From: a virus
Reading direction: 5' to 3' (one strand)
DNA length: 58,954 bases
IMG/VR virus record: IMGVR_UViG_3300038436_000160
Span: 1-58,954 of that record
Both the position numbers and the translations under genes were made by a program. Shown piece by piece: positions 125 to 56,970 of this stretch; the stretch's first letter is position 1; every line of letters starts with the position of its first letter. Below the pieces are notes generated by a model. The model was not told the DNA's origin. It saw nothing but the letters and a program-made list of their open reading frames with translations, and made no database searches.

Positions 125-497
125 AATTAAATTCTAGGAATTTTTGAAATGATTTACTATACGATTTGTTGGTGATCTGTGTAAATTACTGTACATTTCT
201 GTCCCTTTTTGAGCTGGTCACCGTACTTTGCTCGAACCTAAGGCCTCTTATCGAGCCTAGTTTGGAACTCCAGCTTAGTTTTCTTAAAGAACATATTGGC
301 ATCAAATCTTTCGCTGTCACTTATCAATAAGACGTCTTTATTTTACTTTATTAACCCCTGTGGACACAAGGTTGTTTCTGTCACTTTCTGTTGTTGCGCT
401 GATCTTGAGTTAGATGTATTGTATAATACCCATAACCTACATTAAAGATTATTCTTTATAGTAGGACATTTCTCGGTGGGTTAGTTGCCGTTTTTAA
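125..497. other. Intergenic region upstream of the AbrB-like gene
   Basis: No gene is visible in these 373 bases. They hold a perfect 10-bp palindrome AAGACGTCTT (329-338), two CTGTCACTT copies (from about 314 and 378) and a good -10 box TATAAT at 422-427 pointing to the AbrB-like gene, without a clear -35. Bases 375-391 are repeated at 18896-18912. Because the recombinase lies at the opposite end, the left attachment site might be near here, but I found no tRNA-like fragment to mark it. Confidence 0.4.
375..391. repeat. 17-bp dispersed repeat, copy 1
   Basis: TTTCTGTCACTTTCTGT occurs here and again at 18896-18912. Both copies are intergenic, and the second lies between divergent genes. A shorter relative (CTGTCACTT) is at about 314-322. 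This looks like a binding site for a regulator rather than a mobile repeat, but the protein is unknown. Confidence 0.5.
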
Positions 498-15321: not shown

Positions 15322-16491
15322 TTAGAGAGCGCCGATACTCATAATGGCGTGGCGTTGCTCTTGCTCCATTTGCAGTCCACATTCGGTTAGGTACTCATCG
15401 ACCTGACTATCTTCACCAGGGTTTTGACGATTAGTCATAAGCTTGGTGTCACGATTTGTCAGATATCGGTATGTCAAAGCTTCCATGTCTAACCCGACGG
15501 CATAGTTTCCGTAGGTTGTTCCGATTAAGAGCGGATGCTTGATGATGTGCAGTGTGCCGTGTGGAGAATCGTAGGTAACGATTCTGAGTCCATAGGCTTT
15601 GGTCGGATTGACTACTTGGAGTTTCCCTTTTGCCCAGCCATTGATCATCGAAACGACCGAAGCTGAAGCGAAGAGATATTTTTCAGTGTTGCCGTGCGCA
15701 AAGAGACTTTCCAGCCATGAGTCAAACTCAGACTCGGTGTCAACGTTGGCGGTGGCGTAGGTAGCAATCCTTCCTAAGATTCCGCTTGTAAACCTCTTGG
15801 GGTGAGTTCCGGAAGTAAGAATGCCTTTTTTACCAAAGATAAATGTGCGCTCGATATCGACATAATGTTCAATACCTTTTTTGCGCCTCTGGTAGTCAAA
15901 GTCATTTTCTTTCACCCATCCTTGAGTATTTCGGGCAGTTTCAGTGATACCGACCGGAGTTCTGAAAATCTGACAGTAGTTGGACACTTCGGCAATGGTG
16001 GTCGATTTGATATCTCGCAAACCTGCACCTTCCTCATTGGCATTACCAATGAGCCAGACGTCTCCGACTGCTGACGCAGCCGAGCCTGTTGCTCCACCGA
16101 GTTCGGGACCAACTGTTACTGTGTTTGCGTCTACGATAGCGGTTACCTGAAAGACCCATTTCTGTGAGGACACCAAGATGATGTCACCAACTTGAAGATA
16201 CTGCGATTGCCCTGTGACCGTTAAGTTACCGCCATCAGGATCGACAGTGCTTGAGCCGGTAAGCTGTCGCTTTCCAAACTCATCTTCAAACCATTTAAAT
16301 TCTGGGTCAGTGGATTCTTTCTTTTTGAGTGCTTCGCCCTCGCCGGTTGCTGGATCCTTACCAGCGTTTGTTAATATCGCCATTAACGGATATCGGTTGA
16401 CATCCAATAGCGATACAACGTCTGCGACGTCATACTTTCGGGTTGCCCCTAAATTACCTGAACCTCTGATTCCTGTTGCTGATGCTGGCAT
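15322..16491 (-). CDS. Major capsid protein, SU10/DUF5309-like
   Basis: A 389-aa protein with features of the SU10-type HK97-fold capsid family: a flexible N-terminus, a strand-rich insertion (about 85-150) with VGDI and VTVGP turns, a central helix with RRKKGIEHYVDIERTFIFGKK, and an ERxxxxGK-like P-domain helix. A strong Shine-Dalgarno (GGGAGGTGA) lies upstream. It follows the scaffold gene, as usual. It forms the head shell. Confidence 0.85.
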   Translation of the reverse strand: MPASATGIRGSGNLGATRKYDVADVVSLLDVNRYPLMAILTNAGKDPATGEGEALKKKESTDPEFKWFEDEFGKRQLTGSSTVDPDGGNLTVTGQSQYLQVGDIILVSSQKWVFQVTAIVDANTVTVGPELGGATGSAASAVGDVWLIGNANEEGAGLRDIKSTTIAEVSNYCQIFRTPVGITETARNTQGWVKENDFDYQRRKKGIEHYVDIERTFIFGKKGILTSGTHPKRFTSGILGRIATYATANVDTESEFDSWLESLFAHGNTEKYLFASASVVSMINGWAKGKLQVVNPTKAYGLRIVTYDSPHGTLHIIKHPLLIGTTYGNYAVGLDMEALTYRYLTNRDTKLMTNRQNPGEDSQVDEYLTECGLQMEQEQRHAIMSIGAL

Positions 16492-18000: not shown

Positions 18001-18399
18001 TTAAGTAATTGGGAACGGTCTTTGTGCGTCCCACAGTAATGCTCCGACATATACTTCAGCTGACGGGGTGGACCCGGCAGTAATTGTTACAACTGCCCGA
18101 AAATATCTTTTCTTCCGTTCAATCTGCATCTTGTAGCCAGTGTCTGCTTCAACAGTTATTTCCTCTCCGCCTTTGGCAATGCTTACACTAGAAGAAAAAT
18201 CCGAGGCATCAGACTCCTCAATCTTTACCTTAGTGGAGGTTTGATCGCCGAGGTTCCCGATAGCGATGTCGACAAGACCAGAGTCGTAAGCTGGTCGGCC
18301 GGAGAGATATGAATCAACAGCTACGCCTTCAGTGGTTTCTGTAATTACTCCGATAGGGAGAAGAGTAGCTGGATGGATGTTCTGATTAAGTGTTTTCAT
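18001..18399 (-). CDS. Beta-rich head protein, decoration-like
   Basis: A 132-aa protein made of strands typical of a widespread small phage head protein: a hydrophobic DIAIGNLGDQ turn, TSTKVKIEESD, and a final KRYFRAVVTI strand. It is the first gene of the head operon, transcribed from the promoter and leader just upstream. A decoration or head-completion role is inferred. Confidence 0.5.
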   Translation of the reverse strand: MKTLNQNIHPATLLPIGVITETTEGVAVDSYLSGRPAYDSGLVDIAIGNLGDQTSTKVKIEESDASDFSSSVSIAKGGEEITVEADTGYKMQIERKKRYFRAVVTITAGSTPSAEVYVGALLWDAQRPFPIT

Positions 18400-18413: not shown

Positions 18414-18491
18414 AAAAAGGGCTGCAACTTCTAAACACACGCACGAATTGGCGTATATTCAGAAGCCACAGCCCCGATTGTTTCGTTAGGC
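18414..18491 (-). promoter_or_regulatory. Leader with conserved box and terminator-like hairpin, head operon
   Basis: On the minus strand the leader has GCCTAACGAA, then a few bases, then ATCGGGGCT, which begins a long stem-loop closing with AGCCC and a run of five U. The stem is GGGCTG/CAGCCC, a 2-nt internal mismatch, CTTCT/AGAAG and an inner ACGC/GCGT helix. The same layout stands upstream of the portal gene with a different but compensated stem. It reads as an early terminator in a late leader, needing antitermination. Confidence 0.75.
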
Positions 18492-18510
18492 TTTACTTCC
18501 TAATAGCTAC

Positions 18511-18539
18511 AGTCTAGTAAAGGGGAAAATAGTTCTCAA
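18511..18539 (-). promoter_or_regulatory. Late promoter of the head operon
   Basis: On the minus strand TTGAGA (18534-18539) and TAGACT (18511-18516) are spaced by 17 bp, about 13 nt before the conserved leader box. The -10 is a weak match and is shared with the portal promoter as TAG(A/T)CTG, so an activator may be needed. Confidence 0.5.
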
Positions 18540-18568
18540 TACAGTTTCTGTTACTTTGTGGTGATTAA

Positions 18569-18861: not shown

Positions 18862-18898
18862 ATGTTAATTAATGCCCAGAAGCCGTTCAATAAACTTT
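18862..18898 (-). promoter_or_regulatory. Promoter of the DUF5659 gene with the early-promoter element
   Basis: On the minus strand AAAGTTTATTGA (18887-18898) covers a -35 of TTGAAC (18885-18890). After 17 bp comes TAACAT (18862-18867). The first 12 bases are identical to the start of the 19-bp element at the Cro-like and recombinase-partner promoters, so this gene may belong to the same regulon. Confidence 0.55.
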
Positions 18899-18912
18899 CT
18901 GTCACTTTCTGT
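18896..18912. repeat. 17-bp dispersed repeat, copy 2
   Basis: Identical to 375-391. It lies in the divergent region between the DUF5659 gene and the methyltransferase and abuts the AAAGTTTATTGA element. Confidence 0.5.
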
Positions 18913-18940: not shown

Positions 18941-18987
18941 AGTAACGCTATTTTCCTGATACATTAGCGGTGTTAAGATTATTAAAT

Positions 18988-19704
18988 ATGACACAGAATA
19001 AAGCTTATTGGTCATCCATCGCACAAAATTACGACACTGTCGTCAAAGAAACAGGAGATCAGTCTCAGCAGCTTATAATCAATCCTATCGTTCAAGAATT
19101 ACTCGGTGACCTTCAAGGAAAAGTTGTTCTCGATGCTGGCTGTGGGAATGGTTATTGGACTCGCCGAATCTCCGAAACCGCTCAGAGAGTGGTTGGAGTA
19201 GATTTTACTGAAGAGCTTATTGAAAGGGCTAGATCGAGAGGAGTTCCTAAAAATGCCGAGTTCATTATTGGCAATCTAGAAAGACTACTCTTAGCAAAAA
19301 ACACGTTTGATGTGGCTTTAATGAGCATGGTGCTTCTGGATCTCGAGGATCTATCGACTCCTATCGCTGAAGTTGCGAGGGTAACCAGACCAGAGGGATG
19401 TATTATTGTTAGCACCACCCACCCATGTTTTGAAAATCCACCTTATACTCGTTCACTAAGGGATGATAATGGAAATAAAACCGGTAGAGTGATTACGAAT
19501 TATTTTGCAACAGGCTTAGTCAAAGATGAAGTTAACAGCTATCAACATTGGCATTACAAAATATCAGATATTATCAATACTTTTGCCACGAATAGGTTAT
19601 TCGTAGAAAAAATGGTTGAGCCTACCAGTAATGGAGTTATGAAAAATGGTGGACCTGATCACTTTCCTTATTTTTTAATTATAAGATTTAGAAAGATAGT
19701 GTAG
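18988..19704 (+). CDS. Class I SAM-dependent methyltransferase
   Basis: A 238-aa protein from the ATG at 18988; a GTG 18 nt upstream is also in frame. It has the Methyltransf_11-type Rossmann pattern: motif I VVLDAGCGNGYWTR near residue 48, an acidic end to strand 2 (VVGVDFTEELIERA), and motif IV-like FDVALMSMVLLDLED near 110. The substrate is unknown. It is a cargo gene facing the minus-strand phage genes and converges on the signal-peptidase gene with 15 nt between stops. A partial repressor operator lies upstream, hinting at expression in the lysogen. Confidence 0.7.
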   Translation: MTQNKAYWSSIAQNYDTVVKETGDQSQQLIINPIVQELLGDLQGKVVLDAGCGNGYWTRRISETAQRVVGVDFTEELIERARSRGVPKNAEFIIGNLERLLLAKNTFDVALMSMVLLDLEDLSTPIAEVARVTRPEGCIIVSTTHPCFENPPYTRSLRDDNGNKTGRVITNYFATGLVKDEVNSYQHWHYKISDIINTFATNRLFVEKMVEPTSNGVMKNGGPDHFPYFLIIRFRKIV

Positions 19705-19719
19705 GGATACGGTTTATTA

Positions 19720-21519
19720 TTACCTTCCGTTGAGCTTAGTAGCCAACGCTTCTTGCTCGTTATACAAGGTTTTGTCTTGATCAACCATTTTCTGCTCAGC
19801 TCCAGTGAGCCACTGATTGGCCTCCATCCTTGAAACAATTGCTGATATATTCCCAATTCTTACTGCAATGATTTCACTCATCCTATCAACATCAGTTTTG
19901 TTATCTTGATAGAAGTTGGAATTATCTTTGAGGCTGTTCCATCCTGGCTGTATCTCTCTAAGTCTTGTGAGACTAGTTTTCCATGAATCAATATCTGCTT
20001 GCTTATAGTTAGGTGGAACATATCCGGCAAAGTGCTGCACAATAACTTGAGTTGGGCACCCATTAATTTCGCCTTCAACTTCAGAAATACCTACTTCTTG
20101 ATATGTTTTATCTGTTAAAAATTTCTTGGACTCTGGAAATTGAAATTGATTGTCTATGAGTTCTCCTGCTTCGTAGTACCCTTGAGTAGGGGCTTCACCC
20201 CAAACTGTATTTGAGTAACCAGCATCTCTCATGGACTTGGACATGGTATAGCCGCTTTCGGTTGCTTCAAATGAAAAATCATCAAATTTAAGAATTATTT
20301 CACCTCTCTTACTGGCCGAAGTTTCAAGTTTCGGCTGATACTTAAGTTCTTTAGCTCCAGCTTCTTTTCGCTTCTCATTAAGCAACTGCAAATATTTGTC
20401 TTTGTCTAGTTTAATTTTTGACTTTTCATCAAAATCGTTAGCAGTATCTCGCCAGGCATTATCAAGGGTCCCTGTTTGATTTTTTAGAGGCAGTACATGG
20501 TTAATTGCACTTATTTCTATAAATCCTATTTCTCGGGAGTCACCACTTCCTTTGCGGTTATCACCCATAACAAATATTGAATTTTCAGGGACTGTAACTT
20601 TGGTGCATTCGCTAAGGAATGTTTCCCCAAAAGTTGATCTTGGTTGTGCAGTGTAGGATTCTTTCAAGGGCTCACCGTTTAAATAAACAATCCCTTCACG
20701 AAGCTCAATAGTGTCTCCCGGCATTCCTACCACTCTTTTAACCCAGCCAGAAGGATCGCCATATATATTCTTTGTCATTTCTCTGATTTTGTCGTTTTCT
20801 ATTACGACGATGTCGCCTCGACCGATTTCATAGCCGAAGTAACGTCTTCCTGCAATTACAAGCCCGTTTGGATAACGCATCATTCCAGGAGTACCAACGA
20901 TCTGTTTTGCCAGTTCTTTTGGATCCTTACCCTCACCTTTAGGAAAGGTGGGAAACATAGAACCAGTACCAGATATCGTTATAAACTCAGTGCCATAGCC
21001 AAGAGCTTGTTGAACTGTTACTGCCGCCACAGCGTAGCCGCCAATCCAGATTGGGAGCATTACGAGTGTGATCGCTGCAGCTAATGCGAATCGTCCCAAT
21101 ACTCGTTTTGGGTGCAGGGATTTAAGTAACCCTTTTATTCCAGAGTGTTTGACCCTCTTGATCAACTGCAGGGGTTTTAAGATGTGGTTGAGTAGGTAGA
21201 GAGGAAAAATTGCCAGTACAAAAAACAACCTAATGAGAAACAGCAACGGATTCTGTTTTTGTTTTGACCTCGATATTAACAGCGATGCAAGCGCAAATAT
21301 TCCAACAAGAAACGCCAAACTCCCCAATAAAATTAGCCCTAGGAGAGAAAAAGCAAATATTTCAGGGGCATTATCAAAAAGTTCCTTCCTGATCAGCAAG
21401 ACGTAGCCAAAAATGGATACAACTCCTATGACACAAGCTGCCCAAATTAGAAATGATATCTTTGTAACACTTAACAGATATTTATGCTCTGCCTGTCCTG
21501 CAGGCTTTTCTTTATTCAT
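19720..21519 (-). CDS. lepB-like: Type I signal peptidase fused to a CAP domain
   Basis: A 599-aa membrane protein. About five hydrophobic segments occupy residues 20-168. The S26 signal-peptidase domain follows with the catalytic Ser in SGTGSMFPT (Ser187), Lys in GWVKRVVGMPGD (Lys261) and box E MGDNRKGSGDSRE (319-331), so it looks active. Residues about 370-500 resemble a CAP/SCP domain (YLQLLNEKRKEAGAKEL, GYTMSKSMRDAGY, QVIVQHFAG). CAP domains are extracellular and bind or process other molecules. The fusion on a phage suggests it matures secreted cargo proteins at the surface. A TATAAT lies 13-18 nt upstream, giving a near-leaderless mRNA. Confidence 0.75.
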   Translation of the reverse strand: MNKEKPAGQAEHKYLLSVTKISFLIWAACVIGVVSIFGYVLLIRKELFDNAPEIFAFSLLGLILLGSLAFLVGIFALASLLISRSKQKQNPLLFLIRLFFVLAIFPLYLLNHILKPLQLIKRVKHSGIKGLLKSLHPKRVLGRFALAAAITLVMLPIWIGGYAVAAVTVQQALGYGTEFITISGTGSMFPTFPKGEGKDPKELAKQIVGTPGMMRYPNGLVIAGRRYFGYEIGRGDIVVIENDKIREMTKNIYGDPSGWVKRVVGMPGDTIELREGIVYLNGEPLKESYTAQPRSTFGETFLSECTKVTVPENSIFVMGDNRKGSGDSREIGFIEISAINHVLPLKNQTGTLDNAWRDTANDFDEKSKIKLDKDKYLQLLNEKRKEAGAKELKYQPKLETSASKRGEIILKFDDFSFEATESGYTMSKSMRDAGYSNTVWGEAPTQGYYEAGELIDNQFQFPESKKFLTDKTYQEVGISEVEGEINGCPTQVIVQHFAGYVPPNYKQADIDSWKTSLTRLREIQPGWNSLKDNSNFYQDNKTDVDRMSEIIAVRIGNISAIVSRMEANQWLTGAEQKMVDQDKTLYNEQEALATKLNGR

Positions 21520-21531
21520 ACTATTAAGTAA

Positions 21532-21571
21532 ATTATATCGAACTTGAGTTAAAATGGCATTGTCGTATGAT
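21532..21571. promoter_or_regulatory. Divergent promoters of the signal-peptidase and PD-(D/E)XK genes
   Basis: To the right, TTGAGT (21544-21549), 16 bp, TATGAT (21566-21571), then the ATG at 21582, about where transcription should begin. To the left, TATAAT on the minus strand (21532-21537) lies 12 nt before the signal-peptidase ATG. Both would give leaderless or almost leaderless messages. Confidence 0.5.
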
Positions 21572-21581
21572 CAAACCATTT

Positions 21582-22070
21582 ATGAATCAAAGTGAAGATA
21601 ACACATATAAGTATTTTTTTAGGACAAAACACGTAATTAACAGGGTGTCAGAGACGAATATGAAAACTCCTGATTTTGAGGGTGAAAACGTTTTAGTCGA
21701 AGTTAAACAAATTTCTCCCGATGAAGTTGAAGGTTTAAGTAATGATTCTACGTATAACGCCATCAAAAATAATCTTCGTGATGCCGCCAGAAAATTTCGG
21801 GCTTATGACTCGAGTCATTCAAAAAGACATATCGTAGTGATTTACTCTGATGAAATTGTTAGAAACGATATTTATAGTGTATGGACTGGAGAATGGTCAC
21901 CAGAACATAAAGATAGAATTTTTAAAGGTGGTATGCTCCTCTCAAGTAACCACAAACAACATATCGATGGCATAGCCTGGTTCAAGAAGACCACTGACAA
22001 AGCTCCCGCTTATGTGTGGGCAGCAATTGAGGATATAAGGCAATATTTCCCCGAAATAAGCAATGAATAA
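21582..22070 (+). CDS. Predicted PD-(D/E)XK nuclease-fold protein
   Basis: A 162-aa protein. I start at the ATG at 21582, because the earlier in-frame ATG (21567) lies inside the -10 box. Near residues 30-42 it carries TPDFEGENVLVEVKQ, the PD-x(n)-ExK signature of restriction-like nucleases, at the end of a helix and strand as expected. The C-terminal part has a strand (RHIVVIYSDEI) and helices. It ends 76 nt before the NACHT-like gene and is probably its partner in a two-gene defence unit. Confidence 0.6.
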   Translation: MNQSEDNTYKYFFRTKHVINRVSETNMKTPDFEGENVLVEVKQISPDEVEGLSNDSTYNAIKNNLRDAARKFRAYDSSHSKRHIVVIYSDEIVRNDIYSVWTGEWSPEHKDRIFKGGMLLSSNHKQHIDGIAWFKKTTDKAPAYVWAAIEDIRQYFPEISNE

Positions 22071-22146
22071 TTTAGTAAAAAGTTTTATAATTGAACTGGT
22101 ATGAACTGCCCAATAAGTACCGCTCAACTGACTATTTTTGATAACT

Positions 22147-25100
22147 ATGAAAATGAAGTACCAATGGAGAAGATATTGGAGTCCGCCAGAAGGCAGAATA
22201 AGCCTTGCTGATGATGGTTTCCTTGACGATCCCTCTGAGAAATTTGGCAAAATCGTTAACCCTGACCTCGTTGAATTAAATACTCCTGATGACACTGGTT
22301 GTTTGGTAATGCTTGGTGAACCAGGTATTGGCAAAAGTGTGGAGATAGAAAATCTGTTTCAGTCTACGCTGTCCAAACACAGTGCAGACCACGTGCTCAT
22401 GATTGATCTTAGGAATATCCCCACACCGGAAATTTTTCGCGATGAACTTACGGGTGATGCTCGCTATCAAAATTGGGCAACCAATGGAGAGCCGCTTTAT
22501 TTATTCTTGGATAGTTTTGATGAAGGAATGACTTCATCTTCTTTTAAGTCATTTGCTAAATATTTTTACACTTTACTTTCTCGGTACCCAGACAAACTTT
22601 CAAAACTTTATCTTCGTGTTTCGTGCCGCACAGCTCTTTGGCAATCATATTTTGAAAATGACCTCAAGCGATTGTGGAGTACCGGAGATACTTTTCGGAA
22701 ATATGAGCTGTGTCCACTCATTAAAAGCGATGTTGAGAGCGCTTTAGAAGCTCGAGGGATCGATAAAGGACAATTTTTAAAGGACTTGCGAGCTAAGGAA
22801 GTCGTGGGGCTCGCAGGGAAACCACTTACCCTAAATCTCCTAATGGATGTTTATCAACGTGATGGCCAGTTTCCTGAGATGAAAAGTCAGATTTACTCTC
22901 AAGGGTGTGACCTCTTGATTCAGGAGCAAGATCCAGCAAAAAAGAATGATCCAACTGCGAGACCCACTCTCACGCTTGCTCAAAAGATTGCAGTAGCTGA
23001 AAGGATAGCTGCTGCAACAGTCATTGGTGGTAAACCAACAGTTGATCTAGATGGGGAGCTTGGAGAAGGAGAAATAGGATTATCTCAACTTCATGGCAAA
23101 GAATATGTTGACGAGATTCCTGTAGCTGTAGGCGATCAACAAATTCTGGAGGTATTAAATACGGGACTCTTTTCTTCGAGAGGTAATGGCAAAATGGGCT
23201 GGGCCCATCAAACCTACGGAGAGTTTCTGGCTGCAAGATATATCTTTAGACACAAACTCGATTGGCAGCAGACTCAAAGCTTGCTCTTCCATGATCCACT
23301 CAAGATTGGTACTTTTCAAGTTGTACCACAGTTGTATGAGGTTAGCGCATGGATAGCTAGTCTAGATCCATCTTTTTTTGATAACGCTGTTCAGCTTGAT
23401 CCTGAATTTTTGTTGTTGAGTGATGCAAATGTCATTACGGACCTTCAAAAGCAAGGTCTTACCGGACGTTTACTGGTCAAGCTTGATAAGGGAGAATTAT
23501 TCGACCGACGGGAAATCTATAACACCACTAACTACAAAAAGTTGAATTATCCAGGTCTTGGCGAGCAATTGAAACCATATATTGCTGATAACACAAAAGG
23601 TGTTGTTGTCAGAAGAGCCGCCACAGAAATTGCGCTAGCTTGTGCAGTAATCGACTTAGAAGATACTCTTATCAAAATTGCCTTAGACGAATCTGATGAA
23701 TTATCAGTACGTGTATGGGCGATTATAGCTATTGCCAACTTCGGCTCCGACAAATCAAGGGAGAGTATTAAACCACTCATAACCTCAGGCTTCGAAAATG
23801 ATCCGGAAGACGAGCTAAAGGGAGTTGTCCTTAGGGCATTGTGGCCAAAACACATCAGTATAGATGAAGTCCTCTCTTTACTTACACCACCTAAAAAACG
23901 AAGTCTCCACGGCACATATCATGGCTTTATGGGTGAAGATCTTGCCTCATCACTTCGTTCTGAAGATGTAATCCCCGGTTTGGAATGGATAGAAAAGAAT
24001 GTTGATAAGGCTCGAGATCTCGAATACTCCCAAAGAAAGTTGGTTGACGCCATTATGCTCAAGGCATGGGAGCATGCATCTGCTCCTGGGGTACTTGAGA
24101 AGTTTTCCAGCATAGCTTACGACCGGTTGAAAGAATATGAAGAGATAGTTGGAGAAAGAGCTTTAAGCGAAGATATTGCTACCAAGTTCCAGGGAATGCT
24201 AGACGCTCAAGTTGAAGATCGTCACAACTTGATCAAAAAGTTAGTTCGCCTCACGCTAGAAAACGATACTTCTTCAGGAAGGAAGGGATATATTCTTCTC
24301 CACCATAACAACGTGAGAATCGTTACACCTCAAGATATTCCCTGGTTGGTTGATTGGTTGTTGTCAGAAAAAGACGAAGAGACGCAAAAAGTTATTTCTG
24401 AAGTAGTCATGCGAGTTCTGGATGTCCACAGCGTGTCTCAGATTGACCTTGTCTTTCATGCCCGAGAGAAAAACAAATATTTGAAGGAGGACACTCATTT
24501 TTGGTTCCAAACTATAGAGCTCGCTTCTGAATCGGCAAAAACTCAACGAGAGCAATGGGAAGAGCAACAGAGCTGGCAAACAAAGGTTGAAAAAGACGAA
24601 AAAGAAGAAATACTGAAAACACTCTCACTAGAGAGAATCATGGGTCTACTAGAAAAAGTTGAAGGGGGTGATCTCGATTCTTGGTGGCAATTACATAACA
24701 ATCTTTGTATGTATCGTCACGAGTTGGAGGAGGATGACATTCGAGAGTTGCCAGGGTGGAAAATATTGAGTGAAGATCAACAAAAGAAACTTATTGAGTA
24801 TGGGAAAGCTTATCTAGAGAAAATGGAGTCCAAGCCAGAAATGTGGCTCGGGCAAGGTAAAATCTATTATCCTGCACTCGCTGGCTATAGAGCCATTAAG
24901 GCATACTACAGAGAGGAACCACAGTATATTGAAGACCAGGGTGCGGATTTTTGGAAACGCTGGGCGCCGATCACGCTCGGGTTTCCACTTGTCTCCAATG
25001 ACCCTGAAAATGGCAAGCTAATCGCTCTTGCTTATAAGAATGCTCCTGAGAAAGTGCTTTCAACTTTAAGTGTTTTGATTGATGATGAGGCTCAAAAGTA

Positions 25101-26361
25101 TAACGGCCTGTTTATCAATGATTTGCTCGAAGATTCTCTGGATCCAAAACTGAGCCAATTTTTACTAGAGAAAGCCAAGCAAGAAGGTTTTAGTCCGAAA
25201 GCTGCCGGCGAGATTGTTAGATTTTTATTGAGTCATGGAGATCCAGCCACTAAAGAATATGTGAAATCTTTAATCTCGATTCCTCTACCCGAAGATGAGG
25301 AGAAGAGAAACGAAATACTATCAGCCGCTGCTTCCCTAATGTGGAATGCTGACCTCAATGATTGGGAGTTTCTTTGGGGCTTAATGCAGAAAGATAACGA
25401 TTTTGCTAGGGCATTGGTTATCAGAGCCAATGACAGCCCACTAAGAGGCTCGACTGTACTGCAAAGCATGAGCGAACCGTTACTTGCTGATTTATATATT
25501 TGGCTCACCAGGGAGTTTCCACCTGAGAAATATACCCGACCCGAAGGCGTTCATACGGTTACACCACAAATTTCAATTGGCGATTGGCGTGATTCTACTT
25601 TGCGAGTGCTAATGGATAAAGGTACAGCCGAGGCTTGCCGTCAGATTGAACGGGTTGCTGCTATTTTTCCTCAGCATAAGTGGCTCCAACAATACACTCT
25701 TGTGGAAACACGCAGGATTGCCTTACAAAAAACCTGGCATCCACCAGCAGTAGACCAGATATTTAAATTGGTTGAAAACCATGAATTAAGGTTGGTAAAT
25801 AGCCCTGATGAATTGATGGATATTGTTATTGGTTCACTGAAGCGGCTAGAGAGTAAACTCCAAAGAGGTGAACATCCTCAAGCTATTAATCTTTGGAATG
25901 AAAAGCGACCCAAAGATGAAAATCGACTATCTGACTATGTCAAAGTCCATCTTGAAGAGGATTTGAAAAACAAGGGCATTATTGTAAACCGGGAAGTTGA
26001 AATCAAACGTGGGAATAAAACCGACATCCACATAAGCGTGTACGGTCGAGACCACCTAGGAAGGCCAACCGGAGACCCCATGAAAGTCACTATTGAGACT
26101 AAGGGCTGCTGGCATCCAGAACTAGACACTGCTATGGAGTCTCAGCTTGTTGGGCAGTATCTTTCCACAGATGTTTGCCGTCATGGCATTTATTTGATTG
26201 GTTGGTTTGTATGCGATGCCTGGACTGATCGGAAAAATCAAAAGGTTCCGTCTATAGACATCGTTGAAGCGAAAAAACAATTTGATGAGCAAGCCCAAGA
26301 AGTATCTACAAAAACTTCTTACAGAATTGAACCTTTTGTCTTGGATGCAAGGTTAAGGTGA
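22147..26361 (+). CDS. NACHT-like STAND ATPase with HEAT-type repeats and C-terminal nuclease motif
   Basis: A 1404-aa protein from the ATG at 22147. The P-loop is LGEPGIGKS near residue 57, and Walker B is LFLDSFDEG near 119-127, as in NACHT NTPases. A winged-helix/ARC-like region follows (to about 390). Long alpha-helical repeats of HEAT/armadillo type run from about 400 to 1240. The C-terminus has TDIHI near residue 1291 and TIETKG near 1315, a PD-(D/E)XK core. STAND proteins sense phage molecules and trigger an effector. Here the effector could be this C-terminal nuclease, an unusual order. It is not a clear Avs protein. Confidence 0.75.
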   Translation: MKMKYQWRRYWSPPEGRISLADDGFLDDPSEKFGKIVNPDLVELNTPDDTGCLVMLGEPGIGKSVEIENLFQSTLSKHSADHVLMIDLRNIPTPEIFRDELTGDARYQNWATNGEPLYLFLDSFDEGMTSSSFKSFAKYFYTLLSRYPDKLSKLYLRVSCRTALWQSYFENDLKRLWSTGDTFRKYELCPLIKSDVESALEARGIDKGQFLKDLRAKEVVGLAGKPLTLNLLMDVYQRDGQFPEMKSQIYSQGCDLLIQEQDPAKKNDPTARPTLTLAQKIAVAERIAAATVIGGKPTVDLDGELGEGEIGLSQLHGKEYVDEIPVAVGDQQILEVLNTGLFSSRGNGKMGWAHQTYGEFLAARYIFRHKLDWQQTQSLLFHDPLKIGTFQVVPQLYEVSAWIASLDPSFFDNAVQLDPEFLLLSDANVITDLQKQGLTGRLLVKLDKGELFDRREIYNTTNYKKLNYPGLGEQLKPYIADNTKGVVVRRAATEIALACAVIDLEDTLIKIALDESDELSVRVWAIIAIANFGSDKSRESIKPLITSGFENDPEDELKGVVLRALWPKHISIDEVLSLLTPPKKRSLHGTYHGFMGEDLASSLRSEDVIPGLEWIEKNVDKARDLEYSQRKLVDAIMLKAWEHASAPGVLEKFSSIAYDRLKEYEEIVGERALSEDIATKFQGMLDAQVEDRHNLIKKLVRLTLENDTSSGRKGYILLHHNNVRIVTPQDIPWLVDWLLSEKDEETQKVISEVVMRVLDVHSVSQIDLVFHAREKNKYLKEDTHFWFQTIELASESAKTQREQWEEQQSWQTKVEKDEKEEILKTLSLERIMGLLEKVEGGDLDSWWQLHNNLCMYRHELEEDDIRELPGWKILSEDQQKKLIEYGKAYLEKMESKPEMWLGQGKIYYPALAGYRAIKAYYREEPQYIEDQGADFWKRWAPITLGFPLVSNDPENGKLIALAYKNAPEKVLSTLSVLIDDEAQKYNGLFINDLLEDSLDPKLSQFLLEKAKQEGFSPKAAGEIVRFLLSHGDPATKEYVKSLISIPLPEDEEKRNEILSAAASLMWNADLNDWEFLWGLMQKDNDFARALVIRANDSPLRGSTVLQSMSEPLLADLYIWLTREFPPEKYTRPEGVHTVTPQISIGDWRDSTLRVLMDKGTAEACRQIERVAAIFPQHKWLQQYTLVETRRIALQKTWHPPAVDQIFKLVENHELRLVNSPDELMDIVIGSLKRLESKLQRGEHPQAINLWNEKRPKDENRLSDYVKVHLEEDLKNKGIIVNREVEIKRGNKTDIHISVYGRDHLGRPTGDPMKVTIETKGCWHPELDTAMESQLVGQYLSTDVCRHGIYLIGWFVCDAWTDRKNQKVPSIDIVEAKKQFDEQAQEVSTKTSYRIEPFVLDARLR

Positions 26362-27253: not shown

Positions 27254-29143
27254 TTATTGCTGTATCATTTTCCCTAACCCTGGAATCTTGCTGATAAGCT
27301 CTCTAATTTTGTTTTGGTTGGCCACAGGTGGCGTACTACTCGTTTGAGCGGGCAAAGTATCGCTAGAAGGCGCCACAGGGGTCACAATCTCGTCATTTAA
27401 CGGTTCTTCCTCTTTAGCTTCTTGAGATTGAGTAATTTCGGGACCAAGGAGAATATCGACATATTGATCAAGATCTAACTCCTCCAGAATCATTTTTTGC
27501 AAGGCACGCTTGCGGATTAGCCAACGTTTTACATCGGCAGTACTGTTGGGATCCGGTTTATCTTGGGCAATAAATTTGTCGTAAAGAAGCAATATCTGGT
27601 TAAGTCGGGCTTGTTTATCCGGAGGAATGACTGGCTCAACTTCAACAATTGCATCTACCTGGATTTTCTTATCTTCAGATTTAAACTCTTTGAAGTCGAC
27701 ATTGTTGCCAACAATGCGATAGAGTTTGTCTTCACCTATAAACTCACGGTTTAGTTGAATAAGGATGTTAGCCACTATTGTCAGGGCATTCGAAATGTTT
27801 TGAGCATTCATGCTTAGTCTGAGGTTGCTTTGACCCAATAGCATTGCCACCTTACCAAGTGGTTCACCTGATGATTGTGGAAGTCCTTGTAAGTATTCAC
27901 CGAGTGCAAGTGTTCTGGAGATTTCGTCTCGAAGAAGTTTGTCTTCATTCACACCCATTAGACTTATATCAGGTGGTCGCTCGATTACCACATCATCCAT
28001 TTTTCTGAGTTCCCATACAGCTCCCGGTGAGAAAATGATGTCATTCTTGGTTATACCAGTATCTTTCCGAATCTTTACTACTGGATCCAACATCAGCACT
28101 ACGTCATCCATTCTTTGGTTACGGAGATCTGCAATTTCCATAATGGTGCTTTCAACAGGTTCGACGTGACCGGTTGCCCAAAACTCCCAAAGCAGTGACA
28201 TATCAGGGAGGTCTACAAAAATGTGTCCGTTATTGACATCAAGGTAGGGATTTTCGTCATCTCGAATAACTACTTCACCGTTCGCAATAACTATCAGTTG
28301 ATCTTCTTCATAGTCCCAGCACTCCCAGAGCTCCAATTGTTTTTCCTGGTCGTTTTTAACAGGCAAAACTTTTTGTTCTCCGGTTTCTGGTTTTTTGATG
28401 TCACCATCGATTTGAGACATCTTTTTGGTGTTGATTTCATAGCGCTCTTTCTTCCAGTCCTCAACAACTTTTGGTTCACAAAACTCTAAGTTCTTATATA
28501 TTTTGTTCTCACCCCGGTTTTCTTCTTCTTTTGTGATCTTTTCCTTTGGCTTTACAATGCGGTGAATAAGCCACGGACATCCTTCCTGCAAATCTTCAGT
28601 TTCCGGAGCAGGTAAAAAGTCCCACAGATCGCAGAGGATCATTGTCGGGTCGTCGTAAATAGTTTTTATTTTCCCGTCTGATCGTTTCCTGTTGATTATT
28701 TTCCAGGCAAGCTTAACTATTCCGTTCCCATATAAAACTGAAGATTCAATCCAGTTAGGCAACTTTCTTGCGAGCTCAATAATGTCAAAGTCATAGTTAA
28801 CCAAATCTGCCCAGGAGCCGAGGGCAGTTGATTGAATATCAGCTTTTTCTCTGGGAATGACTCTGGTCTTTCGCTTCGCAGTGGCAAGCCTTGATACAAC
28901 GGTTTTAACGATCTCAAAAGCGATCGGAGGCATTAGCCTGGTGTTGTACGCATAGTTTTGTTTGTGCTGATAGGCGCGGTAGAGGCGATACATCCGCAAC
29001 CACTTGGCTTGGTATGGATCACGGAATTCTTTTGCTCGCTTAAATCGGGCTTTCCACTTAGTCAGAAGTGCTGCGTCACGCTCTGAAGGCTGGTATCTGG
29101 CTACTTGGGTGATTTTTACTTCTTTTACTTCGGGTTTTGGCAT
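27254..29143 (-). CDS. Phage portal protein
   Basis: A 629-aa protein with the layout of podovirus/P22-type portals: an N-terminal helix with RDPYQAKWLRMYRLYRAYQHK, a stem and clip region, a long wing with YDDPTMILCDLWDFLPAPE, and a C-terminal helical crown and disordered tail. It forms the dodecameric vertex for DNA packaging. It stands alone between two cargo blocks, about 10 kb from the head operon and 18 kb from the terminase genes, and has its own late promoter and leader. Confidence 0.85.
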   Translation of the reverse strand: MPKPEVKEVKITQVARYQPSERDAALLTKWKARFKRAKEFRDPYQAKWLRMYRLYRAYQHKQNYAYNTRLMPPIAFEIVKTVVSRLATAKRKTRVIPREKADIQSTALGSWADLVNYDFDIIELARKLPNWIESSVLYGNGIVKLAWKIINRKRSDGKIKTIYDDPTMILCDLWDFLPAPETEDLQEGCPWLIHRIVKPKEKITKEEENRGENKIYKNLEFCEPKVVEDWKKERYEINTKKMSQIDGDIKKPETGEQKVLPVKNDQEKQLELWECWDYEEDQLIVIANGEVVIRDDENPYLDVNNGHIFVDLPDMSLLWEFWATGHVEPVESTIMEIADLRNQRMDDVVLMLDPVVKIRKDTGITKNDIIFSPGAVWELRKMDDVVIERPPDISLMGVNEDKLLRDEISRTLALGEYLQGLPQSSGEPLGKVAMLLGQSNLRLSMNAQNISNALTIVANILIQLNREFIGEDKLYRIVGNNVDFKEFKSEDKKIQVDAIVEVEPVIPPDKQARLNQILLLYDKFIAQDKPDPNSTADVKRWLIRKRALQKMILEELDLDQYVDILLGPEITQSQEAKEEEPLNDEIVTPVAPSSDTLPAQTSSTPPVANQNKIRELISKIPGLGKMIQQ

Positions 29144-29158: not shown

Positions 29159-29227
29159 AAAAAAGGGGCTTGGGTTCATCTACTTTTGAAAAATAGAGAA
29201 ACCTAAGCCCCGATAGATTCGTTAGGC
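29159..29227 (-). promoter_or_regulatory. Leader with conserved box and terminator-like hairpin, portal gene
   Basis: On the minus strand the leader carries GCCTAACGAA, then ATCGGGGCT, which opens a stem (GGGGCTT/AAGCCCC, one mismatch, GGTT/AACC) ending in six U (29159-29164). The flanking box is the same as at 18469-18491, but the stem sequence differs with compensating changes. The start codon lies only about 15 nt further on, so a stop here would silence the portal gene. Confidence 0.75.
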
Positions 29228-29245: not shown

Positions 29246-29274
29246 AGACTATAAAATTGAACCCAAAAACTCTA
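29246..29274 (-). promoter_or_regulatory. Late promoter of the portal gene
   Basis: Aligned with the head promoter at a shared TAG(A/T)CTG, the -10 is TAGTCT (29246-29251), overlapping TATAGT (29248-29253). The -35 TAGAGT (29269-29274) is weak. The distance to the leader box differs from the head promoter by one base. Confidence 0.4.
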
Positions 29275-29557: not shown

Positions 29558-32500
29558 ATGGCACTAATTGATAATAAAAACCAGACATTACAGGAAGCAC
29601 TTAAAAATGCCTTATTATCAGCTGACAGCGTAGATATAGCGGTCGGCTTTTTTTATTTTTCTGGCTTCCAAGCTCTCTTTGATCAATTAAAGGATAAGAA
29701 AATTAGAATTTTAGTTGGCTTGGAAGTCGATCCTCAGCTCGTTCCTATGATTGTTCAACAGTCTAAAGAAGGTGATATTGATCTTTCCAAGTGGCAAACA
29801 AGGAACAACGCCAACTCTAGAACCGTTCGGAAGCTCAATTACATTGATGCCTTTGTAAGTTTCATGAATGACAGTGATATTTTTGATAGCGATAGATCGA
29901 ATGATGTTTTTGACCTCTATATTCAGAAGGTAAAAGATGGAACGCTCGAAATTAGAAAGACTGTTTCTGACTATCATGGTAAGTTTTACCTCATTCATAA
30001 CAAACCAGAAGCATCTCAAAACGGAGATTTTCCTGGCACGATGTTTATGGGTTCCAGCAACCTTACCTATCGAGGGCTCATAGGGCAAGGCGAGCTAAAC
30101 GATTCCAACCGTGAGAAGAGTAAGTTTGAAGAGTACCAGACAGAATTTGAACGCATGTGGAATGATGCTCAGTCGATTGCCATTGCAGACATCAACACCA
30201 AAGAAGATTTTATCAAAGCTATAAAGCCTCGTATTTGGAAATATGCCGTTCCCGCACCTTACGACATCTATATTCGCATTCTCCATGAGCTATTTCAGCA
30301 AAAAGAGGTTGATTCCCTTAAAACTCCCAAAGTTATTACTGGAGGCTTATACAGTGACCTTGAATATCAAATCGATGCAGTAAAAATGGTTATCGATAAA
30401 TTAAGTAAATATGATGGAGCTATACTGGCTGACGTTGTAGGACTCGGTAAAAGTATTATTTCCTCGGCGGTTGCCCACAACATGGATATGCGAACAGTGG
30501 TTATCTCGCCACCTCACCTTATTCCACAGTGGGAAGATTACAAAGAGCAGTTTGGTATCAGAGGATCGAAAGTGTTTAGCTCTGGGAAAATTGGCGATGT
30601 CTATGAGCGGTATCAGGATTCTAGAGAGCCAATCTTATTCATACTTGATGAAGCCCACCGTTATCGCAATGAAGATACTTATGACTATAAACTCCTTCAC
30701 CAGGTCTGTAGAGGCAATCCAGACAACAAAGTATTATTACTTACGGCTACTCCCTTCAACAACGATCCCAAGGACGTGTTTGCTCTTCTTAAGTTATTTC
30801 AAACTCCAGGGCAATCAACTATTCGCTCTGTAGATAATCTGAGCTTACGTTATAGAGAACTGATTCAAAGGTATAAAAAACTTCGCCGAGACATGGCGCG
30901 GGATATGGATGCAGACGAAATTGATAAAGAGGCACAGGAAATTGCGGCAGAACAACGTCGACTTATTGAGCCAATTATCATTCGCCGCTCAAGGTTAGAT
31001 CTCAAATATATTACTCGTTATAGAGAAGATTTAGATGCTCAAGGTGTAGCTTTCTCTGAAGTCCTCGGGCCAAATTTGCTTGAGTATGACCTTGGTGACT
31101 TGTACGAGCTTTATATCGAAACTCTGAATTTGATTACAAAATCAGAAAATCAAGGTTTTATCGGTGCTCGCTATAAGCCAACAGATTCCGAGTACATGAA
31201 TGAAGAGAGTCGAAAGAAGTTTATTGAAAAATATAAGGATGAATTTGATGACGTCGAAGACATTAAAATTGCTCAATCCAACTTGGCTCAATTCATGAGA
31301 CGGTTGCTGGTTATGCGTTTTGAAAGTTCCAAAGATGCTTTCCGCTCAACTCTAGAGAAAATGATCGAATCCAATGAAAAGATCGAGAATTGGTGGAACG
31401 AGCTCGGCACTGTCCCTATTATGAAAAAGGGGCAACTACCTGATCCGAAGGATTATGATTTGGAGGATGGTGAAAATGGAGACGCTCTTTCTCAAGACTT
31501 GGAACTTTTACGCAACAGAGGTGGTTTTCTTGAAATAGACAAAGACCTGCTGAACCCTCGTTTTATTGAAGATGTTCGACATGACACTCAATTACTCAAG
31601 TCAATTCACAAGCAGTGGTATGGCAACTCCACATATGCTGATCTTGATCCCAAACTAGACGAATTAGTCTCTAAACTCAAAGACTTCCTTTCTGAAAATC
31701 CTGATAGAAAAATAGTTATCTTCTCTAGCTATAAGGACACAGTAGATTATCTTTTGGATCAACTTCACAAGCGTGGTTTCGATCGCGTAACTAAGTACAC
31801 TGCGGCAGAGGGAACTGATGCTTATAAACAGATAATAAAAGCCAACTTTGATGCTTCTTTCCCCTCTGAGCAACAAAAGAACGATTACGATGTTTTGTTG
31901 GCAACGGATGCCTTAAGCGAAGGTTTTAACCTGCATCGTGCCGGCATCGTCATTAACTATGACATTCCTTACAATCCTACTCGGGTAATTCAGCGTGTTG
32001 GACGTATCAATCGTATAAACAAGAAGGTTTTTGATTCCCTATTCGTTTACAACTGTTTCCCTACAGCAGTAGGTGAAGAAGAAACTCGAGTTAAATCAAT
32101 TTCGACTCTTAAGATTAAGTTAATAAACGCTGTGGTTGGCAGTGATACAAGAACTCTAACCAGCGACGAGGAGCTAAAGAGTTTCTTTAAAGATGAATTT
32201 GATAAAGCTAAACAGCAAGAGGAGCAATTGTCATGGGATGCTCCGCACCGAGAGGCGTATGAGAGAGCTCTTAGAAGTGAAAATATGCAGAGAATCTACG
32301 ATTTACCCAGGAGAAGCCGAATTATGCGTAGTGAAAGCGGCAAGCAAGGTGTGGTTGTTTTTGGAAAGAAAGGAGCTAATTCAATCTTCACCTACGGAAC
32401 AGTGCCTGAAGAGGCAGATGTAGTTTCTGCAGAATATGCTCTCACCTATTTCCAAGCAAAAAAAGACGAAGATGGATCCTCCGTTGGTGACAATTTCACT

Positions 32501-32842
32501 CTTGCCTTTAATACTGCTAAAGAAAAATTATTTGGTAAACACGAGTTGCCAAAAATTCAAGGTCGTAGAGCTAAATCAATTCAGGTATTGAAGGTTATCT
32601 CTGAAGAATTACCAACCTCAAGAGATTACTGCGAGGATATTATTTCTATTATCAAGACTTTGGATGACTTAAGTGACGGAGCCTTAAAGGATATTTCTCA
32701 CCTTGATCTTCGCAATGTTGAAAAAGCCTATGAAAAATTGCTTGAAATTGTTCCTGAGACGTATATCAGAAATGTACTTACTAGAGCGAATCGCACAGAA
32801 AGTGAACAGGAACTGCTCTTATTTGCAGAACAATTTGTATGA
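29558..32842 (+). CDS. PLD-domain SNF2/SF2 helicase
   Basis: A 1094-aa protein. Residues about 1-200 form a phospholipase-D-like domain (YHGKFYLI near 138 and MGSSNLTYRG near 163), of the type used for DNA cleavage or binding in restriction systems. The helicase core has GLGKS near 296, DEAH near 363 and the motif VI QRVGRINRINK near 811. PLD-helicases of this kind drive DNA translocation in RM-like systems (DISARM DrmD and relatives). It overlaps the methyltransferase start by 4 nt. It should track on incoming unmethylated DNA. Confidence 0.8.
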   Translation: MALIDNKNQTLQEALKNALLSADSVDIAVGFFYFSGFQALFDQLKDKKIRILVGLEVDPQLVPMIVQQSKEGDIDLSKWQTRNNANSRTVRKLNYIDAFVSFMNDSDIFDSDRSNDVFDLYIQKVKDGTLEIRKTVSDYHGKFYLIHNKPEASQNGDFPGTMFMGSSNLTYRGLIGQGELNDSNREKSKFEEYQTEFERMWNDAQSIAIADINTKEDFIKAIKPRIWKYAVPAPYDIYIRILHELFQQKEVDSLKTPKVITGGLYSDLEYQIDAVKMVIDKLSKYDGAILADVVGLGKSIISSAVAHNMDMRTVVISPPHLIPQWEDYKEQFGIRGSKVFSSGKIGDVYERYQDSREPILFILDEAHRYRNEDTYDYKLLHQVCRGNPDNKVLLLTATPFNNDPKDVFALLKLFQTPGQSTIRSVDNLSLRYRELIQRYKKLRRDMARDMDADEIDKEAQEIAAEQRRLIEPIIIRRSRLDLKYITRYREDLDAQGVAFSEVLGPNLLEYDLGDLYELYIETLNLITKSENQGFIGARYKPTDSEYMNEESRKKFIEKYKDEFDDVEDIKIAQSNLAQFMRRLLVMRFESSKDAFRSTLEKMIESNEKIENWWNELGTVPIMKKGQLPDPKDYDLEDGENGDALSQDLELLRNRGGFLEIDKDLLNPRFIEDVRHDTQLLKSIHKQWYGNSTYADLDPKLDELVSKLKDFLSENPDRKIVIFSSYKDTVDYLLDQLHKRGFDRVTKYTAAEGTDAYKQIIKANFDASFPSEQQKNDYDVLLATDALSEGFNLHRAGIVINYDIPYNPTRVIQRVGRINRINKKVFDSLFVYNCFPTAVGEEETRVKSISTLKIKLINAVVGSDTRTLTSDEELKSFFKDEFDKAKQQEEQLSWDAPHREAYERALRSENMQRIYDLPRRSRIMRSESGKQGVVVFGKKGANSIFTYGTVPEEADVVSAEYALTYFQAKKDEDGSSVGDNFTLAFNTAKEKLFGKHELPKIQGRRAKSIQVLKVISEELPTSRDYCEDIISIIKTLDDLSDGALKDISHLDLRNVEKAYEKLLEIVPETYIRNVLTRANRTESEQELLLFAEQFV

Positions 32843-38830: not shown

Positions 38831-38832
38831 TT

Positions 38833-39588: not shown

Positions 39589-39590
39589 AA

Positions 39591-45468: not shown

Positions 45469-46374
45469 CTAATTTTTCAATTCATTTAAGAAGTGAATAA
45501 GCTGACCACCTTGAGTATATGTGATAAGTACTGTGCCATTATTTCCTTCCCACTTCAAAAAATAGGTTAACTGGTTTTCTTCGGCACCCTTAGATTCTAC
45601 CTCTAGTGTCATATCGTTCAGCTTTATCTTTCCTAAAGCCAACTCGTGCTCATTGATGAATTCTAGAGCCAGTTTTTTGACTCCCTCTTGTGAATAATGT
45701 GGAGTAAAATCGTAATCCTTTTGAGGACTAAACCAGCGGGAGCCGTCTTTATTTGTACCCCAGGTGCCTTCCTTTGGTGACATTTCAATTACCAGATTAG
45801 TCTTGGTATCTACGGTGAATCGGTCAAAGTCAACGGTATAGCTTTCTGTTTGAGGCTGTTCATCGGGATTACTGTTCGGATTCCTCACACATTCATACTC
45901 AACGTTGGCATCAGGCCTGTCCAGAAAATCCCTGACTGCTTCAACGGCTTTTTCGCGCTCTTCAGCCGGTCTTGCACTGACAAGACACCACTCTTTCTGA
46001 GCCTGTTGATACTTTTGAGTACCTTTGTCCCTGTAGCTGGGGTCATTGTTCAAAAGGTTAGATAGTTCCTGCTGAAGCGCATTTCTCAGGTTCAAGAGCA
46101 TCTCTATAACTGAGCCTCTCGCCATCACGTTGGTCGCAGTGAAACTTATTAATAAAACGCCTAAAACAACTACAGCAAAAGCGTAGGGGATTCTTATGTT
46201 TAGAAAGTCCCAGAATGGCCGCGGTGCTTGAGAGAATGATTTATCTAATTTTTCTTCTAACTTCTGTTCTTCTCTTACTCGAGCCAATATTTGACTCTCT
46301 AAAGCGCTAATGTGCTTGAACTCTTTTTTGCTCTCCTGAAGGAAGAATGATCGGATAATGTTTTTTAGTCTCAT
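45469..46374 (-). CDS. Anti-sigma-like membrane protein
   Basis: A 301-aa protein. Residues about 1-60 are cytoplasmic and charged, as in sigma-binding domains, followed by one membrane helix (about 62-84) and an outer domain of about 215 residues homologous to the 42703 protein. The gene overlaps the sigma gene stop by 4 nt, the usual arrangement of sigma and anti-sigma pairs. It should hold the sigma factor inactive until an envelope signal arrives. The sigma-binding motif is not the standard zinc type, so this is inference from order and topology. Confidence 0.65.
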   Translation of the reverse strand: MRLKNIIRSFFLQESKKEFKHISALESQILARVREEQKLEEKLDKSFSQAPRPFWDFLNIRIPYAFAVVVLGVLLISFTATNVMARGSVIEMLLNLRNALQQELSNLLNNDPSYRDKGTQKYQQAQKEWCLVSARPAEEREKAVEAVRDFLDRPDANVEYECVRNPNSNPDEQPQTESYTVDFDRFTVDTKTNLVIEMSPKEGTWGTNKDGSRWFSPQKDYDFTPHYSQEGVKKLALEFINEHELALGKIKLNDMTLEVESKGAEENQLTYFLKWEGNNGTVLITYTQGGQLIHFLNELKN

Positions 46375-46874
46375 ATCAGTGATTCTTTGAGCTTAACTAT
46401 AGCTCTATAAAAACGCATCTTAACTGCTGCTTCTTTTGAATCGAGGGCAGTAGCGATATCACAAAACTGCATATCCTCGGTAACCCGTAGCCTGATGATT
46501 TCCTGTTCGGCTGGCTTGAGCTTTTTAAGTGCTGCGGTAACTTTCTTTATATCTTCTTCCTGGGTGATTTTTGCCTCAAGCATAACCTCAACATCACTAT
46601 CATCAAAAAGTTCAATGTTATTCTGCTCGATAGACAGGTGGTTATTATGCTTTGACCTGAGCATGTCCGTAATTACGTGACGGCAAATAATAAGGAGCCA
46701 ACTTTTCAACTCACCCTCGCTTTTGAATTTAAAGTTTGTGTATGCTTTCATAGCCTTTAAAAATGTTTCCTGGACGACATCATCAATGTCATCCTGTTGG
46801 GACAGGGACTTTTTCGCAAAAAAATAAACTAATCTGATGTAATCTCTGACTACATCTTCAAAAGGTGGTTTCAT
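46371..46874 (-). CDS. ECF-type RNA polymerase sigma factor
   Basis: A 167-aa protein with sigma region 2 (DDIDDVVQETFLKAMKAY near 28-45, then LKSWLLIICRHVITDMLR) and region 4 (LKKLKPAEQEIIRLRVTEDM, CDIATALDSKEAAVKMRFYRA). Regions 1 and 3 are missing, as in ECF (group 4) factors. It would direct polymerase to the envelope block and possibly to other cargo. It is the first gene of its unit. Confidence 0.85.
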   Translation of the reverse strand: MKPPFEDVVRDYIRLVYFFAKKSLSQQDDIDDVVQETFLKAMKAYTNFKFKSEGELKSWLLIICRHVITDMLRSKHNNHLSIEQNNIELFDDSDVEVMLEAKITQEEDIKKVTAALKKLKPAEQEIIRLRVTEDMQFCDIATALDSKEAAVKMRFYRAIVKLKESLI

Positions 46875-54984: not shown

Positions 54985-55033
54985 ATGATGATTTATGTTC
55001 ATTTGTGTAAACTATTCTCATTATAGTATGATT

Positions 55034-56884: not shown

Positions 56885-56970
56885 GTTTTTATCATAGCAA
56901 ATTCGGGGTAATTGATCAGTAATGTACACAAGCTTCCTACTAATTTACATAAGTGGACAAACTCACTCAC

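What the first reader, a model, noticed from the sequence alone, without database searches (positions are those of the whole stretch)
18414..18539. Late leader of the head operon begins with a terminator-like hairpin
A 17-bp-spaced promoter is followed within about 13 nt by the box GCCTAACGAA, then ATCGGGGCT leading into a long stem and U5, all before the first gene. This is the layout of lambda pR'-tR' or of HK022 put elements, where polymerase must be modified to go on. No Q or N homologue is obvious in the window.
Basis: partly seen in the sequence, partly recalled or inferred. Interest (0 to 1): 0.75.

Follow-up and report, generated by a model that had tools for sequence, protein, structure and literature searches.

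The report
Terminator-gated leader of CPR-phage late operons
In prophages of tiny, mostly uncultured CPR bacteria, the genes for building the virus head each start with the same folded RNA switch: a short conserved signal and then a strong 'stop' hairpin before the first gene. RNA polymerase must probably be licensed to pass that stop, by a control that no RNA catalogue yet describes.

Summary
On the minus strand a promoter, the box CCTAACGAA, ATCGGGGCT, a 24-25-bp stem and a U5 tract precede the first head gene. A second copy precedes the portal gene. Relatives come from IMG/VR contigs and from Microgenomates and other CPR (Patescibacteria) genomes. There I found 27 distinct copies of this form. 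The stem covaries strongly, the box is nearly invariant, and 25 of 27 copies end in a U-run. The copies sit at the same two operons and only in prophages: 8 of 374 genomes of the host class carry one. More distant relatives have a second form in which a small hairpin also covaries, usually before the portal gene. Some of these have a second terminator before the first gene. Rfam has no match. No NusG paralogue or Q/N homologue was found.

My best reading is a conditional leader terminator gating the structural operons, with the box/small-hairpin module as the read-through signal. It works like put, nut or RAT leaders but is not shown to belong to any of them. Termination and read-through are inferred, not measured; the licensing factor is unknown.

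The parts
18536..18561 (-). Direct-repeat motif CCACAAAGTAACAGAAACTGTATTGA overlapping the -35 of the head promoter (operator/activator-like)
   Evidence: the repeat finder family D2; motif conserved upstream of head copies in relatives
18511..18539 (-). Head-operon promoter TTGAGA-N17-TAGACT; may be read by the phage-encoded sigma factor
   Evidence: conserved spacing in relatives; sigma correlation
18482..18491 (-). Box GCCTAACGAA; CCTAACGAA invariant in the 21 aligned copies, CCTGACGAA in genome G100
18470..18478 (-). ATCGGGGCT: TCGGGG invariant; 5' foot of the long stem
18419..18475 (-). Long hairpin (25 pairs counting the closing G-U with U18418, 7 G-U, 8-nt loop)
18414..18418 (-). U5 tract directly after the stem (intrinsic-terminator-like)
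18001..18399 (-). First gene of the head operon (phrog_5707); SU10-type major capsid gene follows at 15322-16491
29246..29274 (-). Portal promoter region TAGAGT-N17-TAGTCT (weak sigma70 match)
   Evidence: read from sequence; position conserved in relatives
29218..29227 (-). Box GCCTAACGAA, second copy
29165..29211 (-). Hairpin of the second copy, GGGGCTTAGG...CCCAAGCCCC
29159..29164 (-). U6 tract of the second copy
27254..29143 (-). Portal protein gene (SU10/P22-like), first gene after the second copy
46371..46874 (-). Phage-encoded sigma factor (Sigma70_r2/r4); candidate reader of the non-consensus late promoters

Best explanation
The element is a conditional leader terminator (attenuator) that gates the portal and head operons of a lineage of CPR prophages. 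Transcription starts about 13 nt before the conserved box. The box module (CCURACGR...YCGGGG, with an inserted small hairpin in the distant form) is the read-through signal. The long hairpin plus U-tract is the terminator that stops unlicensed polymerase before the first gene. Licensing probably needs a trans factor, phage-encoded or host, that acts on the box or on RNAP at the box. It may act by holding CCURA paired with the first Gs of the terminator stem. Shown by comparison: the parts, their strand, RNA-level pairing, positional conservation and restriction to prophages. Inferred: termination, conditional read-through, and a trans factor.
For: RNA-level selection: 96.1% of stem cells paired over 21 copies; 9 pairs with changes on both sides; covariation 0.342 against 0.173 in shuffles (0/500) and at most 0.136 for slid versions. 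103 of 535 pairs are G-U, and the sense strand folds at least as well as the antisense in 24/24 copies (nearly equal in two portal copies). A run of at least 4 U within 6 nt after the stem in 25 of 27 copies against 2.3% background (the script prints 23 because two ATTTTTGT tails were mis-anchored). Strict position: portal and head operon starts, two sense copies in each of G000-G010 and G100. Absent from 43 of 45 genomes of the host order and 366 of 374 of the class. Form II has a covarying small hairpin (4 of 6 pairs with double changes) plus the long stem, found by the form I model at the portal leader. A second terminator before the first gene in L034, L044, L047, L048, L067, L068 and L116. 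In G004, G008 and G100 both copies share the variable triplet, and in G100 also the box change, as expected for a shared reader. In the window no same-strand gene or promoter space lies between hairpin and ATG, so these genes must be reached through the hairpin.
Against: No transcription data. No trans factor identified: no NusG paralogue, Q or N; DUF5659 is not co-distributed. The U-tract is weak in three head copies (L002, L005, L026) although box and stem persist. The proposed antiterminator pairing is weak in form I (-1.5 kcal/mol; 43% of shuffles at least as stable) and cannot be tested by covariation because the bases are invariant. One lineage (L027/L047) keeps the hairpin but has lost the box.
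Confidence: 0.55

Rival explanations
1. Factor-independent put-like antitermination: the two-part nascent RNA itself binds RNAP and makes it resistant to this and later terminators.
For: Two covarying hairpins directly after the promoter in form II. Promoter-proximal position, like putL (PMC9378689). Tandem terminators in some relatives. No trans factor found. Hairpin and box kept where the U-tract decays.
Against: The second hairpin ends in a U-tract and would terminate before it could act. If every polymerase were licensed, the terminator would be pointless. The window's head operon lacks strong internal terminators. No putRNA sequence comparison was made, and Rfam gives no match.
Confidence: 0.17
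2. Constitutive 5' hairpin that stabilises or processes the late mRNA (5'-end protection or RNase III site); the U-run is incidental.
For: Stems of 20-25 bp or more are longer than termination needs and fit RNase III. The U-tract is weakened in L002, L005 and L026 while the stem persists.
Against: U-run in 25 of 27 copies against 2.3% background. Invariant box outside the strong stem. Second terminators in several form II leaders.
Confidence: 0.15
3. Insulator: a plain terminator that stops read-through from upstream into late genes, with promoter-started polymerase passing because it is promoter-proximal or modified at the start.
For: Prophage context; same logic as described for conAn in conjugation operons (PMC8955417).
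Against: The promoter lies upstream of the hairpin in every copy seen, so its own transcripts meet the terminator. In the window the portal copy has divergent genes upstream.
Confidence: 0.08
4. The promoter-hairpin unit makes a short stable RNA (about 90 nt) with a function in trans, for example a late regulatory or packaging RNA, beside any leader role.
For: The unit is a complete small-RNA gene: promoter, structured body, terminator; lambda's pR'-tR' makes 6S RNA (own knowledge).
Against: Genes start 15-40 nt downstream in every copy. Two diverged copies per genome. It always tracks operon starts.
Confidence: 0.05

Closest known systems
HK022 putL/putR RNA (factor-independent antitermination; PMC9378689)
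   Same: Nascent RNA of about 70 nt, two stem-loops (form II), close behind a phage promoter, two copies per genome at two operons.
   Different: The second hairpin here ends in a U-tract and has a box. It sits on late structural operons, in CPR. RNAP contact is untested. Form I has only a marginal first hairpin.
Lambda-type pR'-tR' with Q protein
   Same: Late promoter followed by a leader terminator before structural or lysis genes.
   Different: No Q homologue found. The conserved signal is transcribed, not a DNA site between -35 and -10. The terminator is within about 70-80 nt of the start.
LoaP leaders (UNCG hairpin + intrinsic terminator before the first gene; PMC12691694)
   Same: Small hairpin then intrinsic terminator before the first gene; form III leaders have UACG-loop hairpins.
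   Different: No NusG paralogue in phages; one NusG per host genome. Form I, the form in the window, lacks a UNCG-loop hairpin.
RAT/LicT-SacY and ANTAR leader antiterminators
   Same: Early hairpin that overlaps the foot of a leader terminator (possible CCURA:YCGGGG pairing; second hairpin in form III).
   Different: No such protein found among the window genes scanned. Pairing in form I is weak and invariant. They are metabolic operons, not phage late operons.

Membership tests
HK022 put | Nascent RNA with two stem-loops directly behind a phage promoter | tested here: inconclusive
   Form II has two covarying hairpins; form I, the one in the window, has one strong stem and only a 3-5 bp marginal first hairpin.
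HK022 put | Acts on RNAP through the beta' zinc-binding domain without protein factors | not testable with these tools
   Needs in vitro transcription.
HK022 put | Operon has downstream terminators that are read through | tested here: inconclusive
   None strong in the window's head operon; a second terminator in several form II leaders.
Lambda-type Q antitermination | Q protein encoded by the phage | tested here: not met
   No Q family match among the window proteins scanned against PHROGs (about 50) and Pfam (20).
Lambda-type Q antitermination | Q-binding element in the promoter spacer | tested here: not met
   Spacer sequence differs between portal and head promoters and between relatives.
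Lambda N/nut | boxA plus boxB hairpin and a small Arg-rich N protein | tested here: inconclusive
   Form II has box plus small hairpin; host rRNA leaders carry CTTTAACA-type boxA unlike the phage box; small N proteins are easily missed.
LoaP/RfaH | Specialised NusG paralogue | tested here: not met
   PF02357: none in 6 phage records, exactly one in each of 8 host genomes.
RAT/ANTAR-type antiterminator leaders | Antiterminator hairpin mutually exclusive with the terminator | tested here: inconclusive
   Pairing CCURA:YCGGGG possible, strong in form II, weak in form I.
Any Rfam 15 family | Covariance-model match above the gathering score | tested here: not met
   Only tRNA in the window; LOOT lies beside, not on, two form II leaders.
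Intrinsic terminator | G+C-rich stem directly followed by a U-run | tested here: met
   25 of 27 form I copies.

The most novel reading that the evidence does not exclude
A new family of leader RNAs through which CPR phages control structural gene expression. A box or hairpin signal makes RNAP pass an adjacent terminator without any known antitermination protein, either by the RNA alone or with a new phage factor.
Probability: 0.25. Interest if true: 0.8.

Novelty: new variant of a known kind. Interest (0 to 1): 0.6.

Why it matters
Almost nothing is known of gene control in phages of CPR bacteria; my searches for CPR/Patescibacteria prophages with antitermination or late promoters gave no paper on the subject. 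This gives a precise, portable RNA element with covariation support and two matched copies per genome. It could be tested in vitro with any RNAP. If it is factor-independent it would be a further natural case beside put and EAR. If factor-dependent it leads to a new class of antiterminator. It also gives a sequence tag for late operons of CPR prophages.

Tried and rejected
Integron attC-like site (GCCTAAC...GTT): the downstream GTT is not a conserved complement, and G-U pairs show selection on RNA.

Box as ribosomal boxA or 16S-complementary sequence: host rRNA leaders carry a different boxA and no shared complementarity was found.

LoaP-type NusG paralogue: excluded at Pfam level.

DUF5659 as trans factor (its gene lies just upstream of the head promoter, and copies of the element drive DUF5659 genes in G190 and G428): rejected, because it is absent from phages G001-G005 and common in genomes without the element.

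Conserved pairing of the box with UUUGUUG after the U-run: present in most portal copies, not in form II or several head copies.

Form II pattern scans of IMG/VR gave three chance hits inside genes of unrelated phages. L009 is a chance hit. The MIR9486 hit is far below its gathering score.

Full report
Observation. The promoter TTGAGA-N17-TAGACT (18539-18511) is followed by the box GCCTAACGAA (18491-18482), ATCGGGGCT, a stem of 24-25 bp with an 8-nt loop, U5 (18418-18414), and the first ATG at 18399. The stretch folds at -49.5 kcal/mol, z = -7.2. An identical box with its own hairpin and U6 lies before the portal gene (29227 to 29159; ATG 29143). Rfam 15 has no match in the window except a tRNA.

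Host and setting. The window is a virus record with an SU10-type capsid protein, portal, TerL, serine recombinase and tRNA-Gly. A profile search with the portal found the same phage type in genomes named Woesebacteria, Roizmanbacteria, Gottesmanbacteria, Daviesbacteria, Shapirobacteria, Amesbacteria and Doudnabacteria, that is, CPR/Patescibacteria, mostly Microgenomates. One MAG named Anaerolineaceae is probably mis-binned (inference).

Conservation, form I. A pattern scan of IMG/VR returned the signature only in this phage group, apart from one chance hit. Together with loci around portal and capsid genes and genome searches there are 27 distinct copies. Twenty-one were aligned. CCTAACGAA and TCGGGG are invariant there; later copies in genome G100 read CCTGACGAA. 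The stem has 96.1% paired cells and 9 pairs changed on both sides. Its covariation score is 0.342 against 0.173 in shuffles and 0.03-0.14 in slid versions. Of 535 pairs 103 are G-U, and the sense RNA folds at least as well as the antisense in 24 of 24 copies, nearly equally in two. So selection acts on the transcribed strand. A run of at least 4 U within 6 nt of the stem is present in 25 of 27 copies against a background of 2.3% (its count of 23 misses two ATTTTTGT tails that one search shows). Three head copies have weaker tails (L002, L005, L026).

Place. Covered genomes have two sense copies, one before the portal and one before the head operon, from adjacent operons (G008, G004) to 41.6 kb apart (G010). 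In three of them the head copy precedes the second head gene because the first is missing, so the element belongs to the operon start and not to a gene. Only 2 of 45 genomes of the host order and 8 of 374 of the class have it. In G190 it precedes a DUF5659 gene.

Form II and III. More distant relatives (portal 58-66% identical) have, mostly before the portal only, CCTGACGGC + small hairpin + CTAA linker + ACGGGGCT long hairpin + U-run. Both hairpins covary. The form I model finds these places (E 5e-5 to 0.3), and G100 carries an intermediate box, CCTGACGAA, in both its copies. In L034, L044, L047, L048, L067, L068 and L116 a second terminator-like hairpin stands before the first gene. Still more distant phages (L049-L053, L060) have two early UACG-loop hairpins, the second overlapping the 5' arm of a long terminator. 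L047 keeps the hairpin but lacks the box.

Promoters. In phages that carry the sigma factor at 46371-46874, the late promoters are non-consensus and many share ACAGAAA..ATTGA near -35. In G004, G008, G019 and G020, which lack it, the promoters are consensus-like TTGACA..TACAAT or TTAAAAT. So the 'sigma70' promoter of the finding may belong to the phage sigma. This is a correlation, not a test.

Mechanism. In the window there is no same-strand gene upstream of the portal copy and only about 20 nt between hairpin and ATG, so the transcript of these genes must cross the hairpin. A strong terminator kept there for so long makes sense only if crossing it is conditional or if polymerase is changed at the start (inference). 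The box, invariant yet outside the strong stem, is the natural signal. In three genomes both copies share the same variable triplet, and in one also the box change, although the stems differ, as expected for one shared reader; gene conversion is the alternative. A pairing CCURA:YCGGGG would occupy the foot of the terminator. It is strong in form II and weak in form I, so it is only a hypothesis. It could explain why the 5' Gs are invariant while their 3' partners drift to U or A. No NusG paralogue, Q or N was found. DUF5659 is not co-distributed. The factor, if there is one, is unknown.

Verdict. A new family of conserved leader RNAs of CPR prophages, of the general kind 'leader terminator with a promoter-proximal read-through signal'. 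It works like put, nut or RAT leaders; membership in any of these is not shown. Termination and antitermination remain to be measured.

Noticed in passing
window 366-391 (-), 18536-18561 (-), 18887-18912 (-), 54973-54998 (-), 56967-56982 (+): Repeated motif ACAGAAAGTGACAGAAAGTTTATTGA (11-bp direct repeat) at several promoters: a possible phage regulon operator or activator site, including the promoter of a small HTH gene and one near the recombinase.
   Followed up: partly
window 54948-55014 and 56941-57007: 67-nt inverted pair, 73% complementary: two diverged copies of what looks like one promoter region, facing away from each other around 55-57 kb.
   Followed up: no
window 46371-46874 (-): Phage-encoded sigma factor, present in relatives with non-consensus late promoters and absent in those with consensus promoters.
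   Followed up: partly
window 29558-40877 (+): Defence-like cargo: HKD+SNF2 helicase, type IIG restriction-methylase, Ppl-like protein, Cas4-like nuclease, trypsin-like protease, inserted next to the portal leader.
   Followed up: partly
window 18970-26361: Second cargo block (methyltransferase, S26 peptidase protein, HEAT-repeat giant) separates portal and head operons, each of which has its own leader copy; in form II relatives portal and head genes are adjacent with one leader.
   Followed up: partly
L034:805-929, L068:1847-1967: LOOT RNA (RF03000) lies about 120 nt upstream of form II leaders; may help place this orphan RNA in CPR prophages.
   Followed up: no
L047/L048 leader, L044 leader (just before position 3001): Between element and portal: interleaved complementary segments (GCATCGC..GCGATGC with GTTTCTTCC..GGAAGAAAC; GCATCCC..GGGATGC in L048), read by eye as a pseudoknot, before a second terminator.
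   Followed up: no
L049, L050, L051, L053, L060 upstream of portal: Form III leaders with UACG-loop hairpins, one overlapping the terminator arm (LoaP- or ANTAR-like layout).
   Followed up: partly
window 57294-58931: Large serine recombinase gene overlaps a tRNA-Gly(ccc) gene on the opposite strand by about 68 nt; possible attachment site.
   Followed up: no
L116 (G428), L104 (G190): Element copies that precede a DUF5659 gene instead of portal or head genes.
   Followed up: yes
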